Assembly (NCBI GenBank): GCA_019638845.1
Contig: JAHBSZ010000002.1
Coordinates: forward strand, 620,001-684,000
Origin: Salinibacterium sp.
GTDB taxonomy: Bacteria; Actinomycetota; Actinomycetes; Actinomycetales; Microbacteriaceae
Length of the DNA: 64,000 bases
Direction of reading: 5' to 3'
The notes beneath the pieces were generated by a model. That model ran no database searches. It had not been told where the DNA came from and saw nothing but the letters and a program-made list of their open reading frames with translations. The translations under genes were made by a program, and so were the position numbers. This document shows, piece after piece, positions 8,944-34,971 of the stretch (its first letter is position 1; each line of letters begins with the position of its first letter).

Positions 8944-8957
8944 CGCGGTCAGCCCAT

Positions 8958-17480: not shown

Positions 17481-17978
17481 CTACTGGAACGGGCCGGCCA
17501 CACCGTTGCGGTAGTAATCGAAGATGTGGCTCGTCCGTGTGGACGCCACACTGGGTTGCGCCGAGAGGTGTTCCACGACGAACTCCCGCAGCGCCGACGA
17601 GTCTTTGACGGCGATGTGAACCATGAAGTCGTCGGTGCCTCCCAGGAAGAAGAGTTGCAGCACCTGGGGCAGGCTACGGACCTGTTCCGTGAACCGCGTG
17701 ATGCTCTCCTTTCGGGTGACCGGACGGAGTGTCACCCCGATCATCGCTTGCAGCCCCAAGCCCAGACTGGCTTGGTCGATACTCGCCATGAATCCGGTAA
17801 TGACGCCCCGGTCGATGAGCGACCGCAACCGCACGTGAGCGGTCGACGGCGCGACTCCGACGGCATCAGCTAGACCGTTGTTGGAAATCCGACCATCGCT
17901 TTGGAGCACGGCGAGAATGCGTCGATCGAGGTCATCGAGTGCCTCTTGGCCCCGAAAACTATTCGGAATAGCGACCAT
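17481..17978 (-). CDS. Lrp/AsnC-family regulator, probably of alanine dehydrogenase
   Basis: The 165-residue protein has an N-terminal AsnC helix-turn-helix (LDDLDRRILAVLQSDGRISN, then VAPSTAHVRLRSLIDRGVI) and a C-terminal RAM effector domain (LQLFFLGGTDDFMVHIAVKD). The ATG at 17978 has GAGGGA nearby; an upstream frame extension starting at 18038 is basic and unlike the family. It is divergent from the alanine dehydrogenase gene 142 bp away, the arrangement of aldR-ald in mycobacteria, where the regulator senses alanine and activates ald. The same role is inferred here. Confidence 0.9.
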   Translation of the reverse strand: MVAIPNSFRGQEALDDLDRRILAVLQSDGRISNNGLADAVGVAPSTAHVRLRSLIDRGVITGFMASIDQASLGLGLQAMIGVTLRPVTRKESITRFTEQVRSLPQVLQLFFLGGTDDFMVHIAVKDSSALREFVVEHLSAQPSVASTRTSHIFDYYRNGVAGPFQ

Positions 17979-18120
17979 ATTCGTCCCTCTTTTGCGCCTC
18001 GACCACGAATTTTCCCTCACCGTCCGAAATGTTTTCAATCTTCACACTCTTTAGACGAAGTTTCTCCATCCTAGAAGCAGAACCAAGTCAATTGTCGAGC
18101 TGATCCTGGGAGAGGGACCG

Positions 18121-19218
18121 ATGCGCGTAGGAATTCCAGCAGAGATAAAGAACAACGAGAACCGGGTCGCCATCACGCCCGCTGGCGTTGACACCCTCGT
18201 ACGCCGCGGGCACGACGTGCTCGTGCAAGCCGGTGCTGGCATCAGTTCCCGGATCACCGATGCCGACTACACCGCCGCGGGCGCCACCATCGTGGCAACG
18301 GCGGCCGAGGTCTGGGGTGCCGCCGACCTGCTCCTCAAAGTCAAGGAACCGATCGCTAGCGAATACGGCTACCTGCGCGCGGATCAGACAGTGTTCACCT
18401 ACCTCCACCTTGCCGCGAATGCACCGCTCACCGAAGCACTGGTCGCCTCAGGTACGACCGCTATCGCCTATGAGACTGTCCAGCTTCCGGATCGGAGCCT
18501 TCCGCTGCTCTCGCCGATGAGTGAGGTCGCGGGTCGACTCTCGATCACGGTCGGCGCCTACCACCTCATGCGTTCTGCAGGTGGTGGGGGCGTGCTGATG
18601 GGCGGCGTTCCCGGCACCCCGAAGGCCAAGGTCGTCGTCATCGGCGGAGGTGTCGCTGGTGAGCATGCTGCGGCAAACGCGCTCGGTCTCGGTGCGGATG
18701 TCACGGTGATCGACATCTCTATCCCCCGACTGCGTGCTCTCGAGAACCTCTTTAGCGGGCGAATCCAAACCCGGCTCTCTACCCCGTTCGCGATCGCGGA
18801 GGAACTGCGCGATGCCGATCTCGTGATCGGCTCCGTGCTGATCCCGGGTGCGGCGGCCCCCAAGCTCGTCTCCGACGAGATGGTCTCCACCATGAAGCCG
18901 GGTTCGGTTCTCGTCGACATCGCCATCGACCAAGGCGGCTGTTTCGAAGGCTCCCGCGCGACGACACACGACGACCCGACATTCGCCGTTCATGATGCTG
19001 TCTACTACTGCGTTGCCAACATGCCCGGGGCTGTCCCAGGAACCTCAACGCAGGCGCTCAACAATGCGACGCTCCCCTACGTCATCTCGCTCGCCGACCG
19101 AGGCTGGGAGGCGGCAACCGCTCAAGATGCGGCTCTCGCCAAGGGCGTCAACGTGCAGGCCGGTCGAGTTGTCAACGAGGGCGTCGCTCGCGCCTTGGGT
19201 TACGAGTTCAGCGCCTAG
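18121..19218 (+). CDS. ald: Alanine dehydrogenase
   Basis: Catalyses reversible NAD-dependent oxidation of L-alanine to pyruvate and ammonia. The 365-residue protein shows the family motifs: start RVGIPAEIKNNENRVAITPA, substrate-binding LLKVKEP and FTYLHLAAN, the NAD site VVIGGGVAGEHAAANA and the DIAIDQGGCFE segment. Length is typical. Its divergent AsnC-type regulator supports alanine control. The neighbouring island encodes an aminotransferase of a family that commonly uses pyruvate and forms alanine, so Ald could recycle that alanine to pyruvate; this link is inferred from proximity. Confidence 0.96.
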   Translation: MRVGIPAEIKNNENRVAITPAGVDTLVRRGHDVLVQAGAGISSRITDADYTAAGATIVATAAEVWGAADLLLKVKEPIASEYGYLRADQTVFTYLHLAANAPLTEALVASGTTAIAYETVQLPDRSLPLLSPMSEVAGRLSITVGAYHLMRSAGGGGVLMGGVPGTPKAKVVVIGGGVAGEHAAANALGLGADVTVIDISIPRLRALENLFSGRIQTRLSTPFAIAEELRDADLVIGSVLIPGAAAPKLVSDEMVSTMKPGSVLVDIAIDQGGCFEGSRATTHDDPTFAVHDAVYYCVANMPGAVPGTSTQALNNATLPYVISLADRGWEAATAQDAALAKGVNVQAGRVVNEGVARALGYEFSA

Positions 19219-19224: not shown

Positions 19225-20268
19225 TCAGGCATCCTGAGGGAACCGTGGCGGCGCCACGGGACCCCAGGTGTCTGACAGCGTGTACCCCTCGGGGAACGGG
19301 TCGGTAGGATCGATACCCAGTTGGGCGATGTCGGTGATCCACGCCTGTCCCGAGATCGTCGGCGATACGGCGGGAACGCCTCCCACCTCGGTGGTTCCGA
19401 CAATCGTGCCGACGTACTGTGAGCCCAACACGGATTCGTGAACCAGCGGCTCACCGACGGCAATCTCGCCCCGCGCATGAAGAACGGCGAGTCTCGCGGA
19501 GGTACCCGTTCCACACGCCGATCGGTCTAGCCGACCCGGGCGCACGATCACGGCATTGCGAGCGTGCAGCACTCCCTCACGCCTCGCGAGCGGTCCCATG
19601 ATCTCCGTCTGGGTAATGCCCGCGTACGTCGGATGCACGGGGTGCACAGCGCTCAACTGCTCGACGGCCGCCGCCTTGATGATCTCGCCCACCCGTGAGA
19701 GGTCTGCCGCTTCATCCGGTGTCATCGCGAATCCCAGCTCAGTCGACTCGGCGAGCACATACGCCATGCCGCCCCAGGCGACATCAACCGAAAGCGTGCC
19801 GATGCCCGGCACCTCGAGCGGAGCCTTCTGGTGGTACACAAAGGCCGGCTGGTTGAGCAGTTCCACGCTCACCACCTTGCCGTCAGCGCACGCGCATTTC
19901 AGCCGGATGAGCCCCGCCGGGGACTCGAGCACGAGCTCGGTGATCGGTTCCACCATCTCGACCATGCCCGTTTCGAGAATGACCGTCGCCACACTGATGG
20001 TGTTGCTCCCGGACATCACCGCGTACTCGGTGGACTCGAGGATGACGTACCCGAACTGCGCCTCGGGATGCCGCGACGGGAAGATGATGTCCGCAGCATG
20101 CAGTACCCCACCCACGGGCTCGAAAAGCAGCCGGCGACGGTAGTGGTCGGCGTGATCGCGCAGGTAGTCGCGCTTGTCGAGCATGGTCTCTCCGGGCACA
20201 TCGGTGATGCCACCCGTGACGACGCGGGCATATTCACCACCGGAGTGGGTGCCCACGACGGTCAGCAT
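19225..20268 (-). CDS. Proline racemase-family enzyme (hydroxyproline epimerase or dehydratase) with Ser/Cys active site
   Basis: The 347-residue protein belongs to the proline racemase superfamily, whose members epimerise 4-hydroxyproline or proline or dehydrate trans-3-hydroxy-L-proline. Classic enzymes have two catalytic Cys. Here the first position is Ser86 in YAVMSGSNTI (normally MCGH) and the second is Cys252 in DRSACGTGTSA. Ser/Cys variants exist in the family, so activity is plausible, but which reaction cannot be decided. It is the last gene of the leftward operon with the P-protein-like pair, 16 bp after the previous stop. The nearby D-hydroxyproline-dehydrogenase-like and DapA-like genes favour hydroxyproline 2-epimerase. 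Confidence 0.88.
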   Translation of the reverse strand: MLTVVGTHSGGEYARVVTGGITDVPGETMLDKRDYLRDHADHYRRRLLFEPVGGVLHAADIIFPSRHPEAQFGYVILESTEYAVMSGSNTISVATVILETGMVEMVEPITELVLESPAGLIRLKCACADGKVVSVELLNQPAFVYHQKAPLEVPGIGTLSVDVAWGGMAYVLAESTELGFAMTPDEAADLSRVGEIIKAAAVEQLSAVHPVHPTYAGITQTEIMGPLARREGVLHARNAVIVRPGRLDRSACGTGTSARLAVLHARGEIAVGEPLVHESVLGSQYVGTIVGTTEVGGVPAVSPTISGQAWITDIAQLGIDPTDPFPEGYTLSDTWGPVAPPRFPQDA

Positions 20269-20284: not shown

Positions 20285-21811
20285 TCAGACCTGTGCGTGC
20301 TTGCGGCGGTACGCGGCCCAGGTCACAGCCCAGGTCTCCGGATCGTTGAGACCCGAGCCGTCGATCTGGGCGACGGCCTGGTTGTGGGGCGAAGTACGTA
20401 CCAACTCCGGATCGCGCCGACCCTCCTCGAGCACGTGCTCGAGGACATCGATCCATTCGTCCAAGTCCTCCTTTGACCACATCTCGCCCGCCTCGGGCGT
20501 GAAGGGCTCGGGCACGATCCAGGGCTCGTGCGACATCCAGAAGGCGTCGATGCCGAAGTCGGTCATCCGGTTCTGCACGTCGCCTCCCGTCAGCCCGGTC
20601 TCGACGCGGTACTCCTCGAGCGAGTAGCGGGTCATCTCCAGCCGTGGCAACGCCTTGCCGGGAAGCGACATCGAGACTCCTCTGATGGCCATCAGTCGTT
20701 TCTCCATGTAGTTGTTCGCGAGCACCGAAATGTCGGCGGCCGTGCGCAAGCCTTCCGTGCCCATGGCACGCGTCCACGAGTAGGCCTTGATGACCTGCGG
20801 CACGTTGCCGAGGAACTCACGTACCCGTCCGACGCTGCCGTCGGGTTCGACCAGCTCGTACGCTTCGCCGTTCTTGACTACGCGCGGGCCGGGCAAGAAC
20901 CGCGCAAGCTCCTCGGAGCAGCCGTATGCGCCAACCGACGGCCCGTTGCCGCCCTTGGGTGCGCCAAATGTCTTGTGCAGCATGAACATGCACGCGTCGA
21001 ACCCCAGTTCTCTGGCGCGCAAGCGGGTCATCACGCCGTTGAAGTTGGCGTTGTCGTAGAAGGCGAGTCCGCCTACGTCATGCACCGCATCGATGAACTC
21101 GGTGATGTGGGGGTTGTAGATGCCCATATCGTCGGGGTTGTTGAGCATGAGCGCCGCGGTCTTCGGCCCGATGACTGCTTTCAACGCGGCGACACTCGGA
21201 TAGCCGCCCTCCTCGATGGGCAGAGTAATCACCTCGAACCCGGCGGAGACTGCGGCGGCCGGGTTGCAAGGGTGGGCCTGCGCTGTCGTCACGACCTGAG
21301 TCCGCTGCGCGAGTTCACCGCGAGAGGCGTGGTACGCCCGCGTGATGACGGCGTGCAGGTAGGCGGCGTCCGCGCCGCCACCAGGCTGGAAGCTGAAGGC
21401 TGACATCCCCGAAAGATTGCACAGCTCGGCTTCGAACGAGTGGACGATGCCGAGGACGCCCTGGTACGTGGACGGATCCTGCCGTGGATGCACCTCGGCG
21501 ATCTCGTGGCGAGCGCCGACCTGCTCGTTCACTGTGGGGTTGTGCTTCATCGTGCAGGTTCCGAACAGGCTTACCCCCATCATCCCGAGGGTCTGCTGCG
21601 CGAGGTGGGTGTAGTGCCTGCGCACCTCGTACTCGGCAAGCTCCGGCAAGGCGGGAGGCGATTCCCGTCGAAGCCCAGGCGCGAAGGACGGCTCGGTGGA
21701 TGGCGGCGCCCACGATGCGGGGGGCACAACACCACGGCGACCAGGGGCACCGAGCTCAAAGACGATCGCTTCGTCCCAGGCAGCCGCGTGATATCGACGA
21801 ATCGTGCTCAT
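20285..21811 (-). CDS. Divergent P-protein-like PLP decarboxylase, GcvPB-type subunit
   Basis: A 508-residue homologue of the PLP-bearing subunit of glycine dehydrogenase (GcvPB). The fold signature GTCTMKHNPTVNE at ~85-96 and the PLP lysine Lys280 in MLHKTFGAPKGG are clear. Several positions differ from true GcvPB: canonical LGSCTMKYNP is changed, the HGTNPASA loop reads AHPCNPAAA, and TPHGGGGPG after the lysine reads APKGGNGPS. The N-terminal ~45 residues are extra. Its ATG overlaps the stop of the GcvPA-like gene by four bases (ATGA), as expected for equal expression of a heterodimer. No T-, H- or L-protein gene is nearby. It may decarboxylate another amino acid; this is inference. Confidence 0.82.
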   Translation of the reverse strand: MSTIRRYHAAAWDEAIVFELGAPGRRGVVPPASWAPPSTEPSFAPGLRRESPPALPELAEYEVRRHYTHLAQQTLGMMGVSLFGTCTMKHNPTVNEQVGARHEIAEVHPRQDPSTYQGVLGIVHSFEAELCNLSGMSAFSFQPGGGADAAYLHAVITRAYHASRGELAQRTQVVTTAQAHPCNPAAAVSAGFEVITLPIEEGGYPSVAALKAVIGPKTAALMLNNPDDMGIYNPHITEFIDAVHDVGGLAFYDNANFNGVMTRLRARELGFDACMFMLHKTFGAPKGGNGPSVGAYGCSEELARFLPGPRVVKNGEAYELVEPDGSVGRVREFLGNVPQVIKAYSWTRAMGTEGLRTAADISVLANNYMEKRLMAIRGVSMSLPGKALPRLEMTRYSLEEYRVETGLTGGDVQNRMTDFGIDAFWMSHEPWIVPEPFTPEAGEMWSKEDLDEWIDVLEHVLEEGRRDPELVRTSPHNQAVAQIDGSGLNDPETWAVTWAAYRRKHAQV

Positions 21812-23211
21812 GCTGCGATGACCTCCGCTAGTGCGCCGAGTAAGTGGTGAACGTCGTCCTCGGAGATGACCTCCGTGACGCAGTAGAGCGCGCAGCCGTC
21901 TAGGCCATCATGACTGCCGGTCAGGTCGTGGCCACCGAGCACGCCCCGTGCGAGGAGGCCCGCATTGATCTGCTCTACGGACTTTCCGGTGGCGCTGAAG
22001 TCAACGATGAACTCCTTGAAAATCGAATCGCGGTAGCGCACCGAAACCCCATCTAGCTCGTCGATGAGTTCCGCGGTGCGGCGGGCATTGGCCACGACGG
22101 TATCGGCGAGCTCGTGCATCCCCTGCGGGCCGAGCAGCGCGAGATACACGGCCGCGCGCACCGCCCACAGGTAGACCGAGTTGCCTGTCCAGTCGTTGCC
22201 GAGTTCGCGTGAACCGTACGAACTCTGCGCAAACAGGGTGAGGCCGAACGCGTGTTCGCCTTCCCTGGTTGTGGGCGCGATACTGACCTGAAGTGTGGGG
22301 AATTGGCGTGCGTAGACTTCCTCATCGCGCGTCGCGATGAACCCCCCGACGCCGCCGCCGGCGTTGAGGTGAATGCCCAGCGGCTGGATCGAGCCGACCA
22401 GGATGTCCGCCCCGAAATCGGCTGGCGAGGCGAGGCTCCCGAGCGCGATCGGGTCGACCCCGACGATCGCCTGTGCACCGGAGTCATGGGTGAGCTCGAT
22501 CATCCGCGCAATGTCGGCCTCGACGACCCCCCAGGAGTTCGGGGTCTCGATGTACACCGCCGCGACCTCGTCAGTGACGGCCGCAGCGAGTGCGTCCAAT
22601 GAGATCATTCCGGTCGCGGCATCCACCGCTACTTCGCGCACGGTCACGGCGCCGTTGAGCTCCGAGTAGCCGCAGTAGGTGTCGACGACCAGCCGACGCT
22701 CTCGATCGAGATTCGACGGCACCACGACGACGGATCGGCCGTTCATCCGCGCGGCCATACGCACTGCGTGGCCGACTGCGCAGCCCCAGCTGTACACGGG
22801 CAAGCCGACGAACTCGAGGTCGAGCAGGGCCCCGAGCTGCGAGGCGAACTCGAACCAGGCCTGATTGCGGCCGTGATCGGAACTCGGTGTTCCCCACACC
22901 GACGTGGAGATCTCCGGCCTGCTCGCGATCTCGTCGCACAGGGCCGGCACGTAGTGCTTCCAGTAGCCGCCGCCGAGGAAGGAGACGTGGCTCTCGGTCG
23001 AGATCCCGCCGCGCAACCGATCTTCGAGCATCCTCCGAAGCTGCTGTTCGGAGCGGATTCCGGCCGAAGGCACGATGTTGGAATCTCCGCGATGCGCCGC
23101 GGGGATCTGGGCAAAAAGCTCCTCAGCGCTCGACACTCCGACCACATCGAGCAGCGCCTGCATACTTCCCGCTGCCGAGTTGGCCATGTACGGATGCGCG
23201 GAACCTGTCAT
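21808..23211 (-). CDS. Divergent P-protein-like subunit, GcvPA type
   Basis: A 467-residue homologue of the GcvPA half of split glycine dehydrogenase. The family segment SFLGGGYWKHYVPA is at ~77-90. The highly conserved TPYQPEISQG that follows in true GcvPA is replaced by VWGTPSSDHG at ~105-114, and the DGATAAAEA segment by VYSWGCAVGHA at ~139-149. These lie where the glycine enzyme forms its active-site entrance, suggesting another substrate. The ATG at 23211 has GGTAGGAGAGA in front, 10 bp after the previous stop; a longer frame from 23256 overlaps the upstream gene. It overlaps the GcvPB-like gene by four bases and the two proteins probably form one complex. Confidence 0.8.
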   Translation of the reverse strand: MTGSAHPYMANSAAGSMQALLDVVGVSSAEELFAQIPAAHRGDSNIVPSAGIRSEQQLRRMLEDRLRGGISTESHVSFLGGGYWKHYVPALCDEIASRPEISTSVWGTPSSDHGRNQAWFEFASQLGALLDLEFVGLPVYSWGCAVGHAVRMAARMNGRSVVVVPSNLDRERRLVVDTYCGYSELNGAVTVREVAVDAATGMISLDALAAAVTDEVAAVYIETPNSWGVVEADIARMIELTHDSGAQAIVGVDPIALGSLASPADFGADILVGSIQPLGIHLNAGGGVGGFIATRDEEVYARQFPTLQVSIAPTTREGEHAFGLTLFAQSSYGSRELGNDWTGNSVYLWAVRAAVYLALLGPQGMHELADTVVANARRTAELIDELDGVSVRYRDSIFKEFIVDFSATGKSVEQINAGLLARGVLGGHDLTGSHDGLDGCALYCVTEVISEDDVHHLLGALAEVIAA

Positions 23212-23221
23212 CGTCTCTCTC

Positions 23222-24343
23222 CTACCTCTGTGCTGACTCGAACTGTGCCGCCGCATCGACGACCCTCATGACTGTGCTATTGCGCGACCCTGTCCGCACC
23301 TTGCGATAGCCGACGAGCGAACTAGGTGTGTCGACATCGAGCAGGAGTACGGGCGGGAAGAGCGCGCTGACCTTCTCTGCGGTCGCGACAATGTGAATTC
23401 GGTCGACGCCAATCGAATCGATGACGCGCGTGCTGAGTTGTTGATTTCCCCGGCCGAGCAGAAACCCCTGCCCCCCGACGACGCCAAGAACCAGTTGTGG
23501 ATGCCCGGCGGCAGAGACCACGTCGAACAGATGGTTCTCGTCGACATCGAGTTCCACGAGACCCGACGGGTGCACCACATCGACCCCGAGCAGCGTCGGC
23601 TCGAAGCCGAGCTCCTCGCCAACCGCCCCCGCTGTGGTACCCGGGCCGATCACCCAGGTGACTGCGTTGTCGGAGTGAGCGACGAGCTCGCGTGCGATCC
23701 CGCGAGCTGCCGACGAACCACTCCCCACGGTGGTGGTCTTCGCACCCTGTAGCGCCTCGTGCGACCGCGGAGCGAGAAGCATCCCAACCACCCCGGAGAA
23801 GCCCCCCTCACCCACGTCGAGCACTTCAGCCAACTCCGACGACGCGCGACCAAGAATGACGTCAGCGAGCAGTCGTCCCGCGCCGACGGGCGAGCGCGAG
23901 AACACTTCGGAGTGCATCTTCACCCCCGAGGGGACTCCGATCACGGGCATCCGGGTGCCGATCGCTTCGGCGATGTCAGTAGCAGTGCCGTCCCCGCCCG
24001 CGAAGAGCAGAACCTCAACGCCCTCGGCAAGCAGCCGTCGGGCCGCATCGATGGTGTCGGCCCGGGTCGTCCGCCTGATCGCAGGCGGTGATCCGAGCGT
24101 GCGGTGGTGGATCCCGGCTGCTGCGAGTTGTGTCGCCCCCAGCAGTCCCTGCACCGCTACGAACTCAGCCTCTCCGCCGGTACGCAGAAAGCTGTCGAGC
24201 GCCAGTGTCATCCGATGCCCGGCCCAGTTCGCCTCGACGGCCTCGTCAAAGCGTGCTGCTGGCAGCTCGTCGGTGCCGTGCATCGCGAGCGTGCCGCCGA
24301 AACCCGCAATCGGGTTCACCAGCACGCCCACGCTCACAGTCAC
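23222..24343 (-). CDS. ATP-NAD kinase-like protein (AcoX/NAD kinase fold)
   Basis: The 373-residue protein has the start VGVLVNPIAGFGG and the nucleotide motif AGGDGTATDIAE (GGDGT at ~116-120) of the NAD kinase/diacylglycerol-kinase superfamily, and resembles the ATP-NAD/AcoX group. Members phosphorylate NAD or have lost that activity; AcoX is found in acetoin operons without a proven role. The GTG at 24343 lies just after the stop of the aminotransferase gene. It is embedded between the aminotransferase and the P-protein-like pair, so it serves that pathway rather than general NADP supply (inferred). It could supply NADP or phosphorylate a pathway metabolite. Confidence 0.78.
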   Translation of the reverse strand: MTVSVGVLVNPIAGFGGTLAMHGTDELPAARFDEAVEANWAGHRMTLALDSFLRTGGEAEFVAVQGLLGATQLAAAGIHHRTLGSPPAIRRTTRADTIDAARRLLAEGVEVLLFAGGDGTATDIAEAIGTRMPVIGVPSGVKMHSEVFSRSPVGAGRLLADVILGRASSELAEVLDVGEGGFSGVVGMLLAPRSHEALQGAKTTTVGSGSSAARGIARELVAHSDNAVTWVIGPGTTAGAVGEELGFEPTLLGVDVVHPSGLVELDVDENHLFDVVSAAGHPQLVLGVVGGQGFLLGRGNQQLSTRVIDSIGVDRIHIVATAEKVSALFPPVLLLDVDTPSSLVGYRKVRTGSRNSTVMRVVDAAAQFESAQR

Positions 24344-24347
24344 GAGA

Positions 24348-25727
24348 TTATGCCCCCGAGCGCTGCTCGGCGACAGCGCGGTCAAGAGCGGAACGCACGC
24401 CGGTCACCATCTGCTCGAGCTCGTCTTCAGTGGTCACGAATGGCGGTGCAAAGGACACGGTGTCGGCGTCAGGAAGCGCACGCGTGATGACGCCGAACTC
24501 GCGGGCGGCCTTCGTGACCGCCGCCGCGAAAGCGCCTTGCGGGGCAAACGGACGCAACGGCTCGCGCGATTCGACGAACTCGACGCTCGCCATGAGGCCC
24601 ATACCGCGGGTCTCCGCGACGTTGGGGTGGTCGGCAAACCTGTCCCGCAGAACCTCGTGCAGGAACTTTCCCTTCGACGCGACTTGGGCGATGAGCCCTT
24701 CCCGTTCGATGATGTCGAGATTCGCCATCGCGGCGGCCGCAGCGAGTGGATGTGCGGAGTAGGTATATCCATGACCAAAGCTGCCGTACTTCGCTGAGCC
24801 ATCCAGCAGCACCTTCCACACCTTTTCACTCACCAGAACGGCCGACAGCGGAACGTAAGCCGAGGTGATGCCCTTCGCCACGGTCATCAGATCGGGTCGC
24901 ATACCCACCGCGGTGCTGCCGAAAGGAACGCCGAGCCGGCCGAAGCCGTTGACGACCTCGTCGGCGATGAGGAGCACGTCGTAGCGGTCGAGAACCTCCT
25001 GGACCTTCGCAAAGTAGGTCTCGGGCGGCACGATGACGCCGCCAGCGGCCATCACGGGTTCCGCGATCATCGCAGCCACCGTGTCGGGGCCCTCATTGAT
25101 GATGAGACGCTCGATCTCGGTGACGAGCGACGCGACGAACTGCTCGTCAGTCTGCCCCGCCTCACGCTCCCAGAGGCGGTGTGGCGGGCGGACGTGCCGG
25201 ATCATGGGCAACGGCAAATCGAATCCATCGTGCAGATTCTTCATGCCGGTAAGGCCACCCGACATCACCGTCACGCCGTGGTAGCCGCGGCGACGCGAGA
25301 TGATCTTCTTCTTCATGGGCCGCCCGAGCACATTGTTGTAATACCAGACGAGCTTCACCTGGGTGTCATTGGCGTCGGAACCGGAGTTCCCGAAGAAGAC
25401 CTTGCTCATCGGCACCGGCGCCATTGCGATCAGGCGCTCTGAGAGTTGGGCGGGCAGGTCAGTACCCATCGAGGAGAACGCGTGAAAATAGGGCAGCGTG
25501 AGCGCCTGCTTGCGGATGGCCTCCGCCATGTCCGGATGCGAGTAGCCGACATTCACGCACCAAAGACCGGCCATTGCATCGAGGTACTCCCGCCCGGTGC
25601 TGTCCGTAACAGTGGCCCCGTGTCCTTCGACGATCGTGACGCTCGGCCCACTCTTATCGTGGGCAGCGAGGTTCGTCATCGGGTGGAACAGGAAGTTGCG
25701 GTCTTTTTCCTCGATTTGCATGCTCAT
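24348..25727 (-). CDS. Class III omega-aminotransferase (putrescine/beta-alanine:pyruvate type)
   Basis: A PLP enzyme of 459 residues, close in pattern to putrescine- and beta-alanine-pyruvate transaminases: LDAMAGLWCVNVGYSHP, FFGNSGSDANDT, YHGVTVMSGG, PLP-phosphate-binding Asp256 in ADEVVNGFGR and Schiff-base Lys285 in AKGITSAYVP. Such enzymes move a terminal amino group to pyruvate, giving an aldehyde and alanine. The ATG at 25727 is preferred over a longer frame from 25820 that crosses the divergent promoter. It is the first gene of the leftward operon with the kinase-like, P-protein-like and racemase genes. It is divergent from the aldehyde dehydrogenase that could oxidise its product. 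Confidence 0.88.
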   Translation of the reverse strand: MSMQIEEKDRNFLFHPMTNLAAHDKSGPSVTIVEGHGATVTDSTGREYLDAMAGLWCVNVGYSHPDMAEAIRKQALTLPYFHAFSSMGTDLPAQLSERLIAMAPVPMSKVFFGNSGSDANDTQVKLVWYYNNVLGRPMKKKIISRRRGYHGVTVMSGGLTGMKNLHDGFDLPLPMIRHVRPPHRLWEREAGQTDEQFVASLVTEIERLIINEGPDTVAAMIAEPVMAAGGVIVPPETYFAKVQEVLDRYDVLLIADEVVNGFGRLGVPFGSTAVGMRPDLMTVAKGITSAYVPLSAVLVSEKVWKVLLDGSAKYGSFGHGYTYSAHPLAAAAAMANLDIIEREGLIAQVASKGKFLHEVLRDRFADHPNVAETRGMGLMASVEFVESREPLRPFAPQGAFAAAVTKAAREFGVITRALPDADTVSFAPPFVTTEDELEQMVTGVRSALDRAVAEQRSGA

Positions 25728-25740
25728 CACTTTCAGATCT

Positions 25741-25755
25741 GTGCGCATTACGCAC
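25741..25755. promoter_or_regulatory. Candidate IclR-type operator in the aminotransferase/aldehyde dehydrogenase promoter
   Basis: GTGCGCATTACGCAC is a palindrome with perfect five-base arms (GTGCG/CGCAC). It lies in the 113-bp divergent region. A 12-of-15 match occurs at 36896-36910 in the other divergent promoter of the island. The words CGCACAATA (25770-25778) and CGTATGC (25782-25788) also recur there. The IclR protein encoded at 27380 is the likely binder; this is inferred. Confidence 0.5.
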
Positions 25756-25840
25756 CTGCGGTCGCAAATCGCACAATACCTCGTATGCTGGGAGTATCCA
25801 AACCATTTCCGCCGTCCCAACCAGAGAGGTGTGGCAAACG

Positions 25841-27310
25841 ATGCCCTTCACTCGTCACGAACTCCTCAAGAGCCCACTGTTGCGTACCCAGTTGCACTAT
25901 GGCGGACAGTGGCGAGACGGGTCTGACGGCACCACAAAGGCTGTCACCGATCCTTCGACGGGCGAGGAGATCGTGCAGGTGGCGATCGCGACCGCGCAGG
26001 ATGTCACGGCCGCAATTGAGGCTGCACAGATCGCCTTCATGAGCTGGTCGAAGACCCCGGCACCCGAACGATCGAAGATCCTTCGCCGGTGGTACAACCT
26101 GGTCGTGGAGAACGCCGACGAGCTCGCCGAAATCCTCACCTGGGAGCAGGGCAAGCCGCTCGCGGAGGCGAAGGCAGAAGTTCTGTACGGCGCAGGCTTC
26201 ATCGAATGGTTCGCCGAGGAGGCCAAGCGCCTCTATGGCGAGGTCATCCCCACCAACAATCCCAACCGCCGGATGTACACGACCCGCAACGCGGTTGGTG
26301 TGACCGCAGCGATCACACCATGGAACTTCCCGGCCGCCATGATCCTGCGGAAGGCCTCCCCCGCACTCGCGGCCGGATGCTCGATGATCATCAAGCCCGC
26401 CAGCGAAACGCCGCTCTCGGCGTTCGCCCTCGTCGCTCTCGCGGAGCAGGCGGGAATCCCGGCCGGAGTTCTCAGCGTCGTCAACGGCTCCGGCGCCACG
26501 ATTGGCGCAGTGCTCACGAGCCACGAGCTGGTGCGCACGATCAGCTTTACCGGCTCGACCGAGGTCGGGCGCACGCTCATGGCCCAGTCGTCCGGAACCA
26601 TCAAGCGCCTCGCCCTCGAACTCGGCGGCAACGCGCCTCTCATCGTGTTCGACGACGCGGACATCGCGACGGCCGTGCGCGGAACAATCGACTCGAAGTT
26701 CCGCAACGCGGGGCAGACGTGCGTGTGCGCCAACCGGATACTCGTGCAGGAGGGCATCCATGATGCCTACGTCGCCGCGCTCTCGGCCGAAGTGGCAAAG
26801 CTCAAACTCGGGGACGGTCGTGACCCGGGGACAACCCAAGGGCCGCTCATCTCGCAGTCAGCGGTCGACAAGGTGGAATCGCACATCGCTGATGCGGTCT
26901 CCAAGGGCGCGACGGTTGTCCACGGTGGCAGCCTGAGCGAGCTTGGCGGAACCTTCTTCCAGCCGACACTCATCGTCGGCGCCACCTCCGACATGCTGGT
27001 CTCCACCGAAGAGACGTTTGGCCCGCTTGCCCCGGTTTTCAAGTTCTCTACGGAGGCCGAGGCGATCGAGATGGCCAATGACACCGAGTTCGGTCTCGCC
27101 GCGTACTTCTTCAGCCGCGACTTCGGCCGGATTACCCGCGTCTCGGAGGGGCTCGAGGCGGGTGTGGTCGGCGTGAATACCGGCCTGATCTCGTATGAGG
27201 GCGCGCCGTTCGGCGGTGTCAAGCAGTCCGGTATCGGCCGTGAGGGCTCCCTGCACGGCATCGAGGAGTACACCGAGTTGAAGTACGTGTGCATCGAAGG
27301 CGTCCTGTGA
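25841..27310 (+). CDS. NAD(P)-dependent semialdehyde dehydrogenase (succinate or 2-oxoglutarate semialdehyde type)
   Basis: A 489-residue aldehyde dehydrogenase with the succinate-semialdehyde pattern: coenzyme motif ITPWNFPAAMILRK, GFTGSTEVGR-type loop, catalytic Glu260 in LELGGNAP and nucleophile Cys294 in GQTCVCANR. It ends with the KQSGIGREG motif typical of GabD and of 2-oxoglutarate semialdehyde dehydrogenases. The ATG at 25841 has GAGAGGTG about ten bases upstream; a GTG at 25829 is less well placed. In hydroxyproline catabolism such an enzyme oxidises 2-oxoglutarate semialdehyde, and divergence from an omega-aminotransferase suits it equally to an amine-derived aldehyde. An IclR gene follows 69 bp downstream. 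Confidence 0.9.
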   Translation: MPFTRHELLKSPLLRTQLHYGGQWRDGSDGTTKAVTDPSTGEEIVQVAIATAQDVTAAIEAAQIAFMSWSKTPAPERSKILRRWYNLVVENADELAEILTWEQGKPLAEAKAEVLYGAGFIEWFAEEAKRLYGEVIPTNNPNRRMYTTRNAVGVTAAITPWNFPAAMILRKASPALAAGCSMIIKPASETPLSAFALVALAEQAGIPAGVLSVVNGSGATIGAVLTSHELVRTISFTGSTEVGRTLMAQSSGTIKRLALELGGNAPLIVFDDADIATAVRGTIDSKFRNAGQTCVCANRILVQEGIHDAYVAALSAEVAKLKLGDGRDPGTTQGPLISQSAVDKVESHIADAVSKGATVVHGGSLSELGGTFFQPTLIVGATSDMLVSTEETFGPLAPVFKFSTEAEAIEMANDTEFGLAAYFFSRDFGRITRVSEGLEAGVVGVNTGLISYEGAPFGGVKQSGIGREGSLHGIEEYTELKYVCIEGVL

Positions 27311-27379: not shown

Positions 27380-28183
27380 ATGGCTAATGTTGAGGACACC
27401 CGCAAGTCGGGCGAGTTCATCCAATCCCTCGACCGAGGTCTTTCGGTAATCCGGGCCTTCTCGAATGACCGCGACATGCTGTCGCTCGCCGATGTCGCGC
27501 GCATCACCAACCTCAGCCGAGCAGCAGTTCGCCGTTCCCTTCTCACGCTCGAGGTGCTCGGTTACGTGGGTAGCCGACGTAACCGGTTCTACCTCCGGCC
27601 GCGTGTGCTCGACCTTGGTTACGCCTTCCTCTCGTCATCGTCGGCGATCGACGTGACTCAGGACCACCTGCGTCGCCTCTCTGCGCGCATCGGCGAGTCC
27701 GTCTCCGCGTGCGAGTACGACGACGGTGATGTTGTCTACGTCGCCCGTGCCGCTGCGGAAACCATTCTCCCCATCCGACTCGGGATCGGCCGCCGCCTGC
27801 CTGCGTTCTGCACGTCCACGGGGCGCGTTTTGATTTCCGAGTTCAGCGCCGACCAACTCGACGAGTTCTTCGAGAAGTACCCACGAGAAAAGCTCTCCCC
27901 CGCGACCATCATCGACGAGAAAGAGCTGCGCGACCGCATCGCTCAGGTGCGCGAACAAGGCTGGTCGCTGAACAACCAGGAAGTCGACATGGGTGCACGT
28001 TCGGTCGCTGCTCCCGTGATCGGCGCCGACGGTCAATACCTCAGCGCGGTGAACATCTCGGTGTCAACGTCGCGCGTTTCGGTCGACCAGCTATGCGACG
28101 AATTCGTCCCCATCCTCCTCGACGCGACGGCAAAGATCAGCGCCGACCTCGCGCTCATCAACCGCCGCAAGACCTACGAATGA
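27380..28183 (+). CDS. IclR-family transcriptional regulator
   Basis: The 267-residue protein has an N-terminal winged helix (IQSLDRGLSVIRAFSNDRDM, then LSRAAVRRSLLTLEVLGYV) and an IclR effector domain (CEYDDGDVVYVARA, LPAFCTSTGRVLISE, NNQEVDMGARSVAAPV), most like the PcaR/PobR group. Such proteins activate or repress catabolic operons on binding a pathway intermediate. It is the only regulator within the 19-42 kb island. The two divergent promoters of the island share candidate sites, so it may control both. The following Old Yellow Enzyme gene starts 12 bp after its stop. Confidence 0.92.
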   Translation: MANVEDTRKSGEFIQSLDRGLSVIRAFSNDRDMLSLADVARITNLSRAAVRRSLLTLEVLGYVGSRRNRFYLRPRVLDLGYAFLSSSSAIDVTQDHLRRLSARIGESVSACEYDDGDVVYVARAAAETILPIRLGIGRRLPAFCTSTGRVLISEFSADQLDEFFEKYPREKLSPATIIDEKELRDRIAQVREQGWSLNNQEVDMGARSVAAPVIGADGQYLSAVNISVSTSRVSVDQLCDEFVPILLDATAKISADLALINRRKTYE

Positions 28184-28195: not shown

Positions 28196-29278
28196 GTGTC
28201 GCTCCCTGAACCACAGCTTTTCCAGCCCATCACCATCAACGGCTTGACCCTGCCGCATCGCTTATGGGTAGCCCCCATGTGCCAGTACTCGTCGGTCGAC
28301 GGGATGCCCAACGACTGGCACCTCGTACACCTCGGCTCGTTCGCGATCGGCCGCGCCGGCCTCATCATGACCGAAGCGACCGCAGTCTCGCCCGAGGGTC
28401 GCATCACGCCCGAAGACGTTGGTATCTGGAACGACGAGCACACCGTCGGCTGGCGTCGGGTCGTGGACTTCGTGCACGGCATGAACACCGCAATCGGCGT
28501 TCAGCTCGCGCACGCCGGCCGCAAAGCGTCCGCCTATGCGCCGACGCGCGGACGCGGTTCGGTTCCCGCAGAGGAATCGGGCTGGACCACCGTCGGCCCG
28601 TCTGACGTCGCCTATGGAAGGTTCACTCCCCCCGAAGCTCTCGACGCAGACGGTATTGCCAAGGTGATCGCAGACTTCACCGCGGGTGCACGGCGAGCGG
28701 TCGAGGCCGGATTCGATCTCGTCGAGGTACACGCAGCCCATGGCTATCTTCTCGGGCAGTTCCTCTCGCCCACGTCAAACCTGCGCACCGACGAATACGG
28801 CGGCGACGTGCACCGGCGAGCGCGCCTCACGCGCGAGGTGGTTGCTGCCGTACGCGCGGTCATCCCCGCCACCATGCCACTAGTGCTTCGTATCTCCGCA
28901 ACCGAATGGGTGCCCGACGGCGTGACCGTCGCTGACACCATCGAGGCACTGCACGATATCGACGGCGTGGACCTCGTGAGCGTCTCGTCTGGCGGCAACG
29001 ATCCGCGACAAGAGATCCCGTCGCATCCCGGCTACCAGCAGCCACTCTCTCGTGAGATCCGCGCGGCCATCTCGATCCCCGTCGGAGTGGCGGGCCTGAT
29101 CACCACACCAGCGCAGGCCGAGGCCGCGATCGCCGCTGGCGACACCGACGTCGTCTACGTGGCCCGACAGTTCTTGCGTGACCCCATGCTCGCCTTGCAC
29201 GCGTCGGCGGAGCTCGGCGGCTCGCTCGAGTGGCCCTGGCAGTACGAACGCGCGCAGTACCTCAAGGGACTGTCGTAG
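28196..29278 (+). CDS. Old Yellow Enzyme-family flavin oxidoreductase (YqjM type)
   Basis: A 360-residue FMN TIM-barrel protein of the thermophilic-like OYE class. Visible motifs are VAPMCQYSSVDG with the redox-tuning Cys29, GVQLAHAGRKAS, the substrate-anion pair in EVHAAHGYLLGQFLSP, and SNLRTDEYGG. These enzymes reduce alpha,beta-unsaturated carbonyls with NADPH. The start is a GTG 12 bp after the IclR stop, so the two are co-transcribed. Its substrate in this island is unknown. It could reduce an unsaturated intermediate, or be a degradative dienoyl-type or demethylating relative, since the wider family includes amine demethylases. Confidence 0.88.
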   Translation: MSLPEPQLFQPITINGLTLPHRLWVAPMCQYSSVDGMPNDWHLVHLGSFAIGRAGLIMTEATAVSPEGRITPEDVGIWNDEHTVGWRRVVDFVHGMNTAIGVQLAHAGRKASAYAPTRGRGSVPAEESGWTTVGPSDVAYGRFTPPEALDADGIAKVIADFTAGARRAVEAGFDLVEVHAAHGYLLGQFLSPTSNLRTDEYGGDVHRRARLTREVVAAVRAVIPATMPLVLRISATEWVPDGVTVADTIEALHDIDGVDLVSVSSGGNDPRQEIPSHPGYQQPLSREIRAAISIPVGVAGLITTPAQAEAAIAAGDTDVVYVARQFLRDPMLALHASAELGGSLEWPWQYERAQYLKGLS

Positions 29279-29285: not shown

Positions 29286-29612
29286 TCAGTGGCCGGCGGA
29301 GCCCGTCGGAGCGTCGGCACTCGACGCGCCGATCTGGTGCTCCACGGTCATGCCGTCGCGCACGAATGTGACACAGGTGCGCGTATTGGGAACCCCGTCA
29401 ACGATCATGACGCAGTCGAAGCACACGCCCATTCCGCAGAAGTATCCGCGGGGGTCGTGGTGGTCGGTCTCGCGCAACTCCAGCCCACCGGCAGCCATCA
29501 CCGCCGCTGCGATGCTCTCTCCTTCGTAGGCGTCGACATCCTGCCCGTCGATGCGCATCCGAAGGCCAGCACCCCGTTCGAGGCCGTGGCCGGGCACGCG
29601 CCCGCTGCTCAC
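29286..29612 (-). CDS. Small [2Fe-2S] subunit of a D-amino-acid/hydroxyproline dehydrogenase
   Basis: The 108-residue protein has four cysteines in the plant-type ferredoxin pattern, CGMGVCFDC then RTC (Cys59, Cys64, Cys67, Cys80). Fer2_4-type subunits like this accompany the FAD subunits of hydrogen-cyanide synthase, opine oxidase and D-hydroxyproline dehydrogenase, passing electrons from substrate flavin to the membrane chain. Its ATG overlaps the stop of the DapA-like gene by four bases and it is the last gene of the leftward operon. The partner is almost certainly the large fused flavoprotein two genes upstream. Confidence 0.87.
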   Translation of the reverse strand: MSSGRVPGHGLERGAGLRMRIDGQDVDAYEGESIAAAVMAAGGLELRETDHHDPRGYFCGMGVCFDCVMIVDGVPNTRTCVTFVRDGMTVEHQIGASSADAPTGSAGH

Positions 29613-30544
29613 GGTTGCACCCCCAGCAAGCCCTCCTCCACGAGGACAGCGCGCATCGTCGATAGTGCCTCAGGGTCGGTGATCGGCAAGCGCGGACGAC
29701 GCACGTGACCCGCGGGCTGTCCGAGCATGCGCATGAGCTCCTTGAGTTGCGACTGATAGCCCCCGTAGATGCCCGCCCAGCCACCAGGCAGCCACAGCTT
29801 GGGAAAGAGACGATCCGTGATCACGGCATACTCGGCCATCGCGTCGAAATCGCCGGCCCAGTAGTTCTCCCAGAATGTCGGATCAGGGCGACCCGCGAGC
29901 GAACCCCCGCCGATGGTGCCGTCCCCGCCCTCGGTTCGAAGCACTTCGACACCGGTGGCCGACATGTATGGCCCAAACACGCGGACTCGATCACGCACAC
30001 GGCGAGAGGTCTCGAAGAACTGGTCGACGTTCGGGGTGCTGTCCTTCATCGCGACTACCGAGTCGATGTCGGCGAGCCGATCTGCAAGATCGCTGTCGAT
30101 GTCAACGCCAGTTCCGTGCGGCCAGTTGTAGATGACCAGGGGTGCGCGCACGAGGTCGCTGATCTCCTCGTACCATGCCACGACCTCGTTGGGGAAGAGC
30201 TTGATGTACGGGGGTGGAGAGGCGAGCACCCCATCCGCGCCCGCGCCGATGGCGTGAGCGGCGAGCCGCTGCACGTTCTCGGCTCGATTGGAGGTGCAAC
30301 CCACGAGCACGCGGAGCCGTCCCGCTGCCGCGCCAACTGCAGCCTCGGCAACTTCCATGCGTTCAGATTCACTTTGCGAGAACCACTCACCGCACGTGCC
30401 GTTGACGGCCACGCCATGCATGCCCTCATCCACGTAGTGCTCGATGAGTGCACCCAGAGTCTCGGTGTCGAGCTCCCCGCTCTCGGTGAACGGGGTGACA
30501 ACGGCGGGGAAGTACCCGGCCCAATCGACGTCGTTGCGGTTCAT
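29609..30544 (-). CDS. DapA-family lyase/deaminase, possibly 1-pyrroline-4-hydroxy-2-carboxylate deaminase
   Basis: A 311-residue class I aldolase-fold protein of the dihydrodipicolinate synthase family. Schiff-base Lys167 (VVAMKDST) and the catalytic Tyr139 (LVIYNWP) are present; the first motif GTCGEWF replaces the usual GTTGE. In D-hydroxyproline pathways a DapA-family deaminase converts 1-pyrroline-4-hydroxy-2-carboxylate to 2-oxoglutarate semialdehyde. Its place between the flavin dehydrogenase and the [2Fe-2S] subunit fits that step exactly. Alternative sugar-acid lyase activity is possible since DapA-family members are diverse. Confidence 0.85.
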   Translation of the reverse strand: MNRNDVDWAGYFPAVVTPFTESGELDTETLGALIEHYVDEGMHGVAVNGTCGEWFSQSESERMEVAEAAVGAAAGRLRVLVGCTSNRAENVQRLAAHAIGAGADGVLASPPPYIKLFPNEVVAWYEEISDLVRAPLVIYNWPHGTGVDIDSDLADRLADIDSVVAMKDSTPNVDQFFETSRRVRDRVRVFGPYMSATGVEVLRTEGGDGTIGGGSLAGRPDPTFWENYWAGDFDAMAEYAVITDRLFPKLWLPGGWAGIYGGYQSQLKELMRMLGQPAGHVRRPRLPITDPEALSTMRAVLVEEGLLGVQP

Positions 30545-33274: not shown

Positions 33275-33278
33275 CGGA

Positions 33279-34127: not shown

Positions 34128-34194
34128 TGTGTTACTCCATTCGTTGTGTGTTACTTCGGGATGGGTCAGGTGCAGGAATCGCACTGGTGCGGTG

Positions 34195-34971
34195 TTAGTT
34201 CGGGAGTCGTACTGATTCGGTTGTCAGGGAACCGGCCTTGGTACGGTCGATGATCCGGTGGATCAGCTGGCGCTGTCGGGCACGGAGCAGGCGGCCGACG
34301 ATGCCGAGGGGCGGTCGCACGTATGCGCCCTCGATCAGCCGGAAGATGAGGTCGATAGCGAATGCCGCGATCACGTAGATGATGGCTGCCGCCGTATAGA
34401 GCACGAACGGTTGGAATGTGGTCGCCACCAAGTTCTGCGTGACGCGCACAACCTCGAGAAGACCAATTACCGTGAACGTCGAGGTGTCCTTCACCATGCC
34501 GATGAACATGCTGCCGATGTTGGGAAGGGCGATCTTCACCGCCTGCGGCAGGTTCACGGACAGGAAGATCTGGGGCGACCGCATGCCCAAGGCCCATCCC
34601 GCCTCGGTGTGCCCGAAGGGTACCGCCGCGAGCGCCGACCTAAAGATCTCGGCGAAGAACGCGCTATAGAGCAGCGACAGCGCGATGACGCCAGCCTGGA
34701 AGACAGTGAACCGGATGCCCAGGAGCAGAGCAACACCGAAGTACACCCAGATCACGCTCACCAATGCCGGGACACCACGGAAGATGTTGGTGTACACCAG
34801 AGCGATCCAGCTAAAGGGCTTCGGCGCTGTGCGGAGCACCGCAAGGCCGAGACCACCCACGACGGAGATCACCAGCGCCACGATCGCGACCGAAAGGGCC
34901 GTCCACAGCCCGTTGATCAGGGCCTCGCGGTTGTCCCAGATCAGAGACCAGTCATAGTCGAAAAACGCCAT
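34195..34971 (-). CDS. Amino-acid ABC transporter permease (HisM/GlnP type)
   Basis: A 258-residue inner-membrane protein with about five hydrophobic helices (LWTALSVAIVALVISVVGGL onward) and the permease motif EAGWALGMRSPQIFLSVNLPQA that contacts the ATPase. TNIFRGVPALVSVIWVY is the family's conserved segment. The ATG overlaps the stop of the ATPase gene by one base (TAATG), so the two are translationally coupled. One permease alone implies a homodimer. A tail of ~40 basic residues follows the last helix. Confidence 0.94.
   Translation of the reverse strand: MAFFDYDWSLIWDNREALINGLWTALSVAIVALVISVVGGLGLAVLRTAPKPFSWIALVYTNIFRGVPALVSVIWVYFGVALLLGIRFTVFQAGVIALSLLYSAFFAEIFRSALAAVPFGHTEAGWALGMRSPQIFLSVNLPQAVKIALPNIGSMFIGMVKDTSTFTVIGLLEVVRVTQNLVATTFQPFVLYTAAAIIYVIAAFAIDLIFRLIEGAYVRPPLGIVGRLLRARQRQLIHRIIDRTKAGSLTTESVRLPN

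What the first reader, a model, noticed from the sequence alone, without database searches (positions are those of the whole stretch)
20285..25727. Split P-protein-like decarboxylase with omega-aminotransferase, NAD-kinase-like protein and racemase: a candidate undescribed pathway
Two adjoining genes encode homologues of GcvPA and GcvPB, yet no T-, H- or L-protein gene is near, and signature residues of the glycine enzyme are replaced (TPYQPEISQG by VWGTPSSDHG; TPHGGGGPG by APKGGNGPS). They sit in one operon after an omega-aminotransferase and an ATP-NAD-kinase-like gene, and divergent from an aldehyde dehydrogenase. Seen: the residues and gene order. Known: P-proteins are PLP decarboxylases; omega-aminotransferases turn amines to aldehydes. 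Inferred: an amino acid is decarboxylated by the P-protein-like pair, the amine is transaminated to an aldehyde, and the aldehyde is oxidised to an acid, with alanine returned to pyruvate by the nearby alanine dehydrogenase.
Basis: partly seen in the sequence, partly recalled or inferred. Interest (0 to 1): 0.8.

Follow-up and report, generated by a model that had tools for sequence, protein, structure and literature searches.

The report
Repurposed glycine-decarboxylase pair in catabolic island
A bacterium carries, next to its normal glycine-breakdown enzyme, a distantly related two-part copy that has lost the glycine enzyme's signature and sits in a gene island that looks built to break down some other nitrogen compound, so automatic annotation is probably mislabelling an enzyme family whose reaction is unknown.

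Summary
Window 20285-25820 encodes GcvPB-like and GcvPA-like proteins, an NAD-kinase-family protein and a class III aminotransferase in one operon. Both P-like proteins pass NCBIfam's GcvPA/GcvPB cut-offs, yet form a clade (74 P-like against 54 canonical rows) apart from glycine dehydrogenases. All 74 lack one active-site tyrosine and keep 2-5 of 15 residues of the predicted H-protein interface; the PLP lysine is kept in all. gcvT and gcvH lie in 0 of 84 P-like loci. The host has gcvT, gcvH and gcvP elsewhere. Paenibacillus tuaregi has the pair with no detectable canonical P-, H- or T-protein. So the pair is probably an H-protein-independent PLP enzyme, not glycine dehydrogenase. The NAD-kinase-like gene accompanies it in 36 of 36 clade I loci. 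In clade II the pair travels with a dehydrogenase and often alpha-glucosidase-family and beta-galactosidase genes, hinting at a glycosylated hydroxy-amino acid, perhaps hydroxylysine. The substrate is unproven.

The parts
20285..21811 (-). GcvPB-like subunit (carries the PLP lysine)
   Evidence: NF003346 477.4 bits; closest solved sequence 1wyt_B; AlphaFold model matches 9a73_B and 1wyt_B
21808..23256 (-). GcvPA-like subunit; likely start near 23211
   Evidence: NF001696 379.6 bits, PF02347 140.7 bits; closest solved sequence 1wyt_A
23222..24385 (-). NAD-kinase-family (PF01513) protein of unknown substrate; constant partner in clade I
   Evidence: PF01513 57.4 bits; in 36 of 36 clade I loci, within 300 bp of the PA match in 32; GGDGT and GGQG..GRGNQ motifs
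24348..25820 (-). class III omega-aminotransferase
   Evidence: NF004767 582.5 bits over 517; nearest solved sequence 5kr6
19225..20268 (-). proline-racemase-family protein, last gene of the operon
   Evidence: PF05544 388.4 bits; six NCBIfam equivalogs hit, all below cut-off; 16 bp from PB
25829..27310 (+). SSADH-type aldehyde dehydrogenase, divergent
   Evidence: TIGR01780 681.4 bits over 646.35
27380..28183 (+). IclR-family regulator
   Evidence: PF01614 and PF09339; TIGR02431 274.1 bits, below 284.75
28196..29278 (+). old-yellow-enzyme-type oxidoreductase
   Evidence: PF00724 232.5 bits
29286..29612 (-). 2Fe-2S domain protein
   Evidence: PF13510 90.7 bits; 42.5% to the N-terminal part of FADox60
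29609..30544 (-). DHDPS-family lyase
   Evidence: TIGR00674 133.2 bits, below 206.15
30578..33346 (-). fused FAD oxidoreductase (soxA-like then soxB/DAO-like half)
   Evidence: TIGR01372 and TIGR01373, both below cut-off
33279..35774 (-). amino-acid-type ABC transporter: solute-binding protein, permease, ATPase
   Evidence: PF00497, PF00528, PF00005; SBP 130.2 bits to the Lys/Arg/Orn SBP subfamily, below 256.35
35771..36853 (-). glyoxalase-family protein
   Evidence: PF00903 57.2 bits
36944..39591 (+). two SDR dehydrogenases (36944-37735, 37742-38509) and a 3HCDH-family dehydrogenase (38560-39591)
   Evidence: Pfam; 3HCDH 47.7% to that of L060
39596..42372 (.). MoaF-family protein (39596-40465, -), DAO-family FAD oxidoreductase (40556-42040, +), small cupin (42037-42372, +)
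   Evidence: Pfam
17481..19218 (.). Lrp-type regulator (17481-18038, -) and alanine dehydrogenase (18121-19218, +)
   Evidence: Pfam; TIGR00518 556.9 bits over 391.85

Best explanation
The PA/PB-like pair is a PLP-dependent heterodimer derived from the glycine-cleavage P-protein that works without H-protein and does not act on glycine. Most likely it keeps the parent's chemistry (breaking a carbon-carbon bond next to a PLP-bound amine, leaving a carbanion) but puts a proton on the carbanion instead of passing it to lipoate. It does this within a catabolic island for a nitrogen compound that carries a hydroxyl group; alcohol dehydrogenases, FAD oxidases and, in this genome, an aminotransferase and an aldehyde dehydrogenase would act before or after it. 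Shown: ancestry, loss of glycine/H-protein signatures, kept PLP lysine, gene company, coexistence with a complete glycine cleavage gene set. Inferred: C-C cleavage, proton as acceptor, substrate class.
For: P-like rows are monophyletic against canonical ones in the PA tree (0.99), the PB tree (0.971) and a reduced IQ-TREE of the concatenation (58 rows, UFBoot 100). The second Tyr of TPY is Y in 54 of 54 canonical rows and a gap in 36 of 36 and 38 of 38 P-like rows. Human Y161 and Y164 are listed as active site in PMC7259800 (passages); that they sit on this motif is my placement from recalled human sequence. Of the 15 residues of REQHIRREKATSNIC, where I place that paper's H-interface residues I372, R373 and K376, canonical rows match 13-15, clade I 2-4, clade II 3-5. 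PLP lysine in all 128 rows. gcvT 0 and gcvH 0 of 84 P-like loci; at 20 canonical loci of 13-20 kb gcvT 16 and gcvH 12. P. tuaregi: pair present, no canonical P, no H, no T found. Own genome: separate GcvP in a 990-aa frame with H and T. Clade I: NAD-kinase-like 36/36, HCDH 21/36, AT3 19/36, ALDH 15/36; each 0/20 at canonical loci. A plasmid relative has a primary-amine oxidase in the same run of genes.
Against: No activity is measured. Both proteins exceed NCBI's GcvPA/GcvPB cut-offs. In the full concatenated FastTree the P-like node has only 0.592 support. One Asgard bin (G233) has H and T hits but no P hit other than the P-like one, so there the pair could still serve glycine cleavage. 32 of 38 genomes also have a P hit of 330 bits or more and 35 of 39 an H-protein hit, so H-protein is usually available. 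Gene company differs widely between lineages, so no single substrate fits all.
Confidence: 0.55

Rival explanations
1. One reading: the pair decarboxylates a larger amino acid to an amine, the omega-aminotransferase turns it into an aldehyde with pyruvate as acceptor, the SSADH-type enzyme oxidises it, and alanine dehydrogenase recycles alanine.
For: Gene company and enzyme families; SSADH subfamily score above cut-off; a second, unrelated amine-removing enzyme (primary-amine oxidase) follows the pair in Gemmobacter fulvus p3; APC-family permeases beside the pair in two of seven plasmid loci.
Against: Aminotransferase in 19 of 36 clade I and 0 of 37 clade II loci, ALDH 15 of 36 and 0 of 37; alanine dehydrogenase in 3 of 36 clade I loci; leaves the constant NAD-kinase-like gene of clade I unexplained.
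Confidence: 0.3
2. Amino-ketone lyase: an SDR- or 3HCDH-type dehydrogenase oxidises an amino alcohol R-CH(OH)-CH2-NH2 to R-CO-CH2-NH2, and the pair cleaves it hydrolytically, through the same PLP-CH2 carbanion as glycine decarboxylation, to R-COOH and methylamine. For hydroxylysine the acid would be glutamate.
For: SDR68-type gene in 33 of 37 clade II loci, HCDH in 21 of 36 clade I loci; SDRs and HCDH in this window too. In clade II an MGH1-like glycosidase in 16 of 37, GH2 in 13, GH42 in 2, MGH1-like plus a beta-galactosidase in 11; each 0 of 20 at canonical loci. Collagen hydroxylysine bears alpha-Glc-(1-2)-beta-Gal (PMC11012932 passages).
Against: The chemistry is argued from analogy only. 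The four MGH1-like proteins scanned score far below named-enzyme cut-offs. Glycosidases in 0 of 36 clade I loci. Many clade II loci are close Bacillaceae relatives; 17 of 37 clade II loci have neither glycosidase.
Confidence: 0.2
3. A glycine dehydrogenase isozyme that borrows the host's H-protein.
For: NCBIfam equivalog cut-offs passed; H-protein in the host and in 35 of 39 genomes searched; G233 has H and T but no other P hit.
Against: Active-site Tyr lost and predicted H-interface largely lost in all 74 rows; gcvT/gcvH in 0 of 84 loci; present in P. tuaregi without detectable canonical P, H or T.
Confidence: 0.07
4. Another PLP reaction: aldol cleavage, racemisation, transamination, or phosphate elimination after phosphorylation by the NAD-kinase-like protein.
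For: The NAD-kinase-like protein is a constant clade I partner; racemase-family genes recur. Its model's nearest kinase folds are diacylglycerol and sphingosine kinases, though only at E about 2e-3 to 2e-2 and TM under 0.35, and the top hit is an epimerase.
Against: 22 clade II genomes gave no NAD-kinase-like match while 6 of 6 control genomes did, so phosphorylation by it cannot be obligatory for the family.
Confidence: 0.18

Closest known systems
Split glycine dehydrogenase GcvPA/GcvPB (P-protein; Thermus 1wyt/1wyu/1wyv)
   Same: Two subunits, fold of the B subunit, PLP lysine, much of the conserved core
   Different: Separate clade; TPYQPEISQG, the HGT region, PHGGGGPG (in clade I) and REQHIRREKATSNIC changed; no gcvT/gcvH in the loci; found in genomes without detectable H-protein
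NAD kinase (PF01513)
   Same: Family match and GGDGT motif
   Different: Host has another PF01513 gene that scores higher; no solved relative found by sequence; weak fold matches include diacylglycerol and sphingosine kinases
Omega-amino acid:pyruvate aminotransferase plus succinate-semialdehyde dehydrogenase
   Same: Aminotransferase nearest 5kr6; ALDH over the SSADH subfamily cut-off
   Different: Linked here to a P-like pair and a kinase-like gene; substrate unknown
Hydroxyproline catabolism (epimerase, FAD oxidase, DHDPS-family deaminase, semialdehyde dehydrogenase; pathway recalled, from no call)
   Same: The window has a family member for each step
   Different: No hydroxyproline-pathway model was reached above its cut-off; role not tested

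Membership tests
Glycine dehydrogenase (decarboxylating), P-protein | Sequence homology of both subunits | tested here: met
   NF001696 and NF003346 above cut-off
Glycine dehydrogenase (decarboxylating), P-protein | PLP lysine of the B subunit | tested here: met
   Lys in 36 of 36, 38 of 38 and 54 of 54 rows
Glycine dehydrogenase (decarboxylating), P-protein | TPYQPEISQG active-site motif of the A subunit | tested here: not met
   Matches of 10: canonical 7-10, clade I 1-3, clade II 1-2; Tyr a gap in all 74 P-like rows, Y in all 54 canonical
Glycine dehydrogenase (decarboxylating), P-protein | Predicted H-protein interface REQHIRREKATSNIC | tested here: not met
   Matches of 15: canonical 13-15, clade I 2-4, clade II 3-5; interface assignment from passages of PMC7259800 and my placement
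Glycine dehydrogenase (decarboxylating), P-protein | Works with T- and H-protein; genes together or at least in the same genome | tested here: not met
   0 of 84 loci with gcvT or gcvH; G227 (P. tuaregi), G218 and G220 gave neither H nor T. Against: G233 has both and no other P hit; the host itself has both
Glycine dehydrogenase (decarboxylating), P-protein | Glycine decarboxylation / carboxyl exchange | not testable with these tools
   Needs enzyme assay
NAD kinase | PF01513 domain with GGDGT | tested here: met
NAD kinase | Phosphorylates NAD | not testable with these tools
   Another PF01513 gene in the genome scores higher, 66.3 against 59.6 bits
Succinate-semialdehyde dehydrogenase | Curated cut-offs | tested here: inconclusive
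   Subfamily TIGR01780 681.4 over 646.35; equivalog NF008415 681.9 below 828
Hydroxylysine (collagen) catabolism | alpha-glucosidase and beta-galactosidase genes with the pair | tested here: inconclusive
   11 of 37 clade II loci have an MGH1-like gene and a beta-galactosidase, 0 of 36 clade I, 0 of 20 canonical; specificity unknown
Hydroxyproline epimerase / 3-hydroxyproline dehydratase | Equivalog cut-offs | tested here: not met
   Best NF047722 376.9 against 550; Ser and Cys in the MSGSN and CGTG motifs (their catalytic meaning is recalled)

The most novel reading that the evidence does not exclude
A bacterial and archaeal enzyme family, annotated as GcvPA/GcvPB, is an H-protein-free lyase that cuts oxidised hydroxylysine-type amino-ketones. 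With an SDR, a GH63-like alpha-glucosidase and a beta-galactosidase it would form a bacterial route for the Glc-Gal-hydroxylysine of collagen; the window's island would be the actinobacterial form, joined to hydroxyproline-type genes.
Probability: 0.15. Interest if true: 0.85.

Novelty: new variant of a known kind. Interest (0 to 1): 0.6.

Why it matters
If right, many genes named glycine dehydrogenase are something else, glycine-cleavage predictions from gcvPA/gcvPB alone go wrong in some genomes (P. tuaregi), and a PLP enzyme tied to a lipoyl carrier has been freed from it and reused. The unit of pair plus NAD-kinase-like protein (clade I) or pair plus SDR (clade II) gives a clear target for assay, and its company points to testable substrates such as hydroxylysine. 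Among the papers listed by searches of the open-access library, judged by title and opening of the abstract, I saw none that describes it; two searches matched 76 and 333 papers of which 12 and 40 were listed, and subscription journals are mostly not covered.

Tried and rejected
Canonical isozyme: judged unlikely on tree, motifs and genomes. Ephedrine-type degradation as the meaning of the Rhodococcus cluster: one paper search, nothing useful. Selenocysteine or recoded TGA in L009/L010, suggested by '2 TGA': the stops lie outside the gene. Sugar-acid reading from DHDPS/KdgD scores: all far below cut-off. NAD-kinase-like protein as an obligatory partner of the whole family: no match in 22 clade II genomes (L077 not held), with 6 of 6 matches in control genomes run afterwards. 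The structure model of the NAD-kinase-like protein (mean pLDDT 87.9) gave no match below E 0.001. The PB model (mean pLDDT 76.2, weak N-terminus) only confirmed the P-protein fold. The active site lies between the subunits and no heterodimer was modelled.

Limits of the counts: the 71 loci come from one scan seeded by the window's PA; many Bacillaceae are close kin; loci differ in length; score thresholds were mine. The 54 canonical rows include single-chain proteins cut into two halves, 24 of them from genomes of the same order. The tree set left out L020, L101 and L103 as too short and L002-L005 as copies of the own genome. In one search five 4.3-kb clade II loci (L006-L010) were left out and four longer stretches (L151-L154) used in their place; L101, L103 and L105 were left out. 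FADox60 counts differ (21 of 36, 20 of 36) because the window slice differed; the window's own HCDH lies outside both slices and is not counted. The NAD-kinase-like match is within 300 bp of the PA match in 32 of 36 clade I loci; in L045, L053, L057 and L071 it is 0.4-2.8 kb away. IQ-TREE gave clade I only 39 support in the reduced set (1.0 in FastTree), and clade II was not monophyletic in the PA tree alone. The H-protein hit in G234 is weak (24.4 bits).
Full report
WHAT IS THERE. The operon is real. On the minus strand lie, in transcription order, a class III aminotransferase (24348-25820), an NAD-kinase-family protein (23222-24385), a GcvPA-like protein (21808-23256), a GcvPB-like protein (20285-21811) and a proline-racemase-family protein (19225-20268), with gaps of -38, -35, -4 and 16 bp on ORF-caller starts. 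An SSADH-type aldehyde dehydrogenase runs divergently (25829-27310), followed by an IclR regulator and an old-yellow-enzyme-type gene. The six closest PA relatives (75-77% identity) are four Microbacterium, one Leucobacter and one record labelled Planococcus, so the host is probably a member of Microbacteriaceae.

THE HOST'S OWN GLYCINE SYSTEM. On another contig (C1) the genome has a GcvP match in a 990-aa frame, a GcvH match beside it and a GcvT match of 301 bits next to that. The P-like pair is therefore an extra copy.

ANCESTRY. I gathered 71 loci from one scan of genome contigs, five close matches from 198 genomes of the same order and P-protein genes from 38 genomes behind those loci. In trees of 74 P-like and 54 canonical rows (split pairs, or single chains cut in two) the P-like set is monophyletic: FastTree support 0.99 for PA and 0.971 for PB, and UFBoot 100 in IQ-TREE on a reduced concatenated set of 58 rows, 40 of them P-like. 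In the full concatenated FastTree that node had 0.592 support, with one Bathyarchaeal canonical pair as its neighbour. The P-like set splits into clade I (36, with the window) and clade II (38); clade II was not monophyletic in the PA tree alone, and clade I had only 39 in IQ-TREE. Both P-like proteins nevertheless pass NCBIfam's equivalog cut-offs, which explains names such as gcvPA/gcvPB on plasmid relatives.

RESIDUES. By the listing, 31 columns of PA and 38 of PB are fixed (90% or more) in canonical rows and fixed otherwise in one or both P-like clades. The second tyrosine of TPY is Y in 54 of 54 canonical rows and a gap in 74 of 74 P-like rows. PMC7259800 (passages seen) lists human Y161 and Y164 as active site and I372, R373 and K376 as H-interface; placing these on the TQYTPYQ and QHIRRDK motifs is mine, from recalled human sequence. 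Of 15 residues in the latter block canonical rows match 13-15, clade I 2-4 and clade II 3-5. The PLP lysine is kept in all 128 rows.

INDEPENDENCE FROM H-PROTEIN. gcvT and gcvH were found in 0 of 84 P-like loci; the same queries found gcvT in 34 and gcvH in 29 of 58 control records, most of them about 4.3 kb long, and gcvT in 16 and gcvH in 12 of 20 longer canonical loci. Of 38 genomes holding the pair, 32 also have a P hit of at least 330 bits. Six do not: G210, G218, G220, G227, G233, G234. No H-protein hit was found in four of 39 genomes (G210, G218, G220, G227), and no T-protein hit in three of nine (G218, G220, G227; G210 has a partial one of 34.7 bits). G227 is the genome of Paenibacillus tuaregi, whose locus lies on a 5.63-Mb contig of a genome of about 5.7 Mb, so absence is believable there; the other three are metagenome bins. 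Against this, G233 (an Asgard bin) has H and T hits but no P hit other than the P-like one.

COMPANY. Clade I (n=36): NAD-kinase-like 36, HCDH 21, DHDPS 21, FADox60 20, AT3 19, IclR 19, ALDH 15, OYE 7. Clade II (n=37): SDR68-type 33, CUT1 solute-binding protein 17, MGH1-like glycosidase 16, GH2 13, NAD-kinase-like 13, GH42 2; AT3 and ALDH 0. Canonical loci (n=20): all of these 0 except one OYE. Eleven clade II loci have both an MGH1-like gene and a beta-galactosidase: eight from Bacillota and three (L151, L152, L154) from genomes of the host's order; a Bacteroidetes bin (L095) has the MGH1-like gene alone; 17 of 37 have neither. Seven plasmid loci show more variety: Roseicitreum antarcticum pRA01 repeats most of the window's cast (SSADH, NAD-kinase-like, PA, PB, DHDPS, SDR, OYE, 3HCDH, 2Fe-2S and FAD proteins, IclR); Gemmobacter fulvus p3 has an APC permease, an SDR, an acyl-CoA synthetase and a primary-amine oxidase; Rhodococcus qingshengii RQCS_2 has SDRs, an APC permease, an AMP-binding enzyme and an ArgE/DapE deacylase. 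In the window the island continues through a 2Fe-2S protein, a DHDPS-family lyase, a fused FAD oxidoreductase and an amino-acid ABC transporter (33279-35774) to a glyoxalase-family gene, two SDRs, an HCDH (47.7% to that of L060), a MoaF-family protein, a DAO-family enzyme and a small cupin.

HOW IT PROBABLY WORKS. The common ground is a PLP carbanion enzyme freed of its lipoyl partner, in what look like catabolic operons with alcohol dehydrogenases, amine-removing enzymes and amino-acid or sugar-type importers. I put 0.55 on 'H-free C-C cleaving PLP enzyme acting on a compound other than glycine'. Two concrete versions compete: decarboxylation to an amine followed by transamination and oxidation (0.3), and cleavage of an amino-ketone formed by the dehydrogenase (0.2). 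The second is attractive because R-CO-CH2-NH2 would give the same PLP-bound carbanion as glycine, and because collagen's hydroxylysine carries alpha-Glc-(1-2)-beta-Gal (PMC11012932 passages), the two linkages that the clade II glycosidases could open. GH63 YgjK has been crystallised with glucose and lactose (PMC7263609 passage). The MGH1-like proteins here score far below any named enzyme, so this is a lead only.

THE NAD-KINASE-LIKE PROTEIN. It has GGDGT and a distinctive GGQG..GRGNQ motif, no solved relative found by sequence and only weak fold matches, among them diacylglycerol and sphingosine kinases. The host has another PF01513 gene. Its fixed presence with the pair in clade I suggests a kinase for a pathway intermediate rather than a general NAD kinase. 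Yet 22 clade II genomes gave no match, where the same query matched 6 of 6 control genomes, so the family can work without it.

VERDICT. Interest 0.6.

Noticed in passing
window 4216-12614: CUT1-type sugar ABC transporter genes (4216-7380), a GH2-family protein (8958-11438) and a LacI-family regulator (11625-12614) lie upstream of the island.
   Followed up: partly
L105 (Rhizobium sp. WYCCWR10014): NAD-kinase-like gene followed by only a short PA match (residues 5-88); the pair may be truncated there.
   Followed up: no
G203 (genome of L043) C1:12056-13372 and C1:436556-437914; also G226 and G230: Some genomes have two P hits in the P-like score range besides a higher-scoring P-protein.
   Followed up: no
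G233 (genome of L100, Heimdallarchaeota bin): GcvH and GcvT hits but no P hit other than the P-like one: a possible case where the pair serves glycine cleavage.
   Followed up: partly
window 30578-33346: A 922-aa fusion of a soxA-like and a soxB/DAO-like half; in plasmid relatives such as pRA01 FAD proteins are separate genes.
   Followed up: partly
window 39596-40465: MoaF-family protein between the HCDH gene and a DAO-family gene.
   Followed up: no
L143 (Natronosalvus halobius plasmid): P-like pair beside an M20-family hydrolase and within 10 kb of kynureninase and indoleamine dioxygenase genes, without the NAD-kinase-like gene.
   Followed up: no
G221 (genome of L078) and G226 (genome of L093): These genomes hold further NAD-kinase-like copies away from the pair, one interrupted by a stop.
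   Followed up: no
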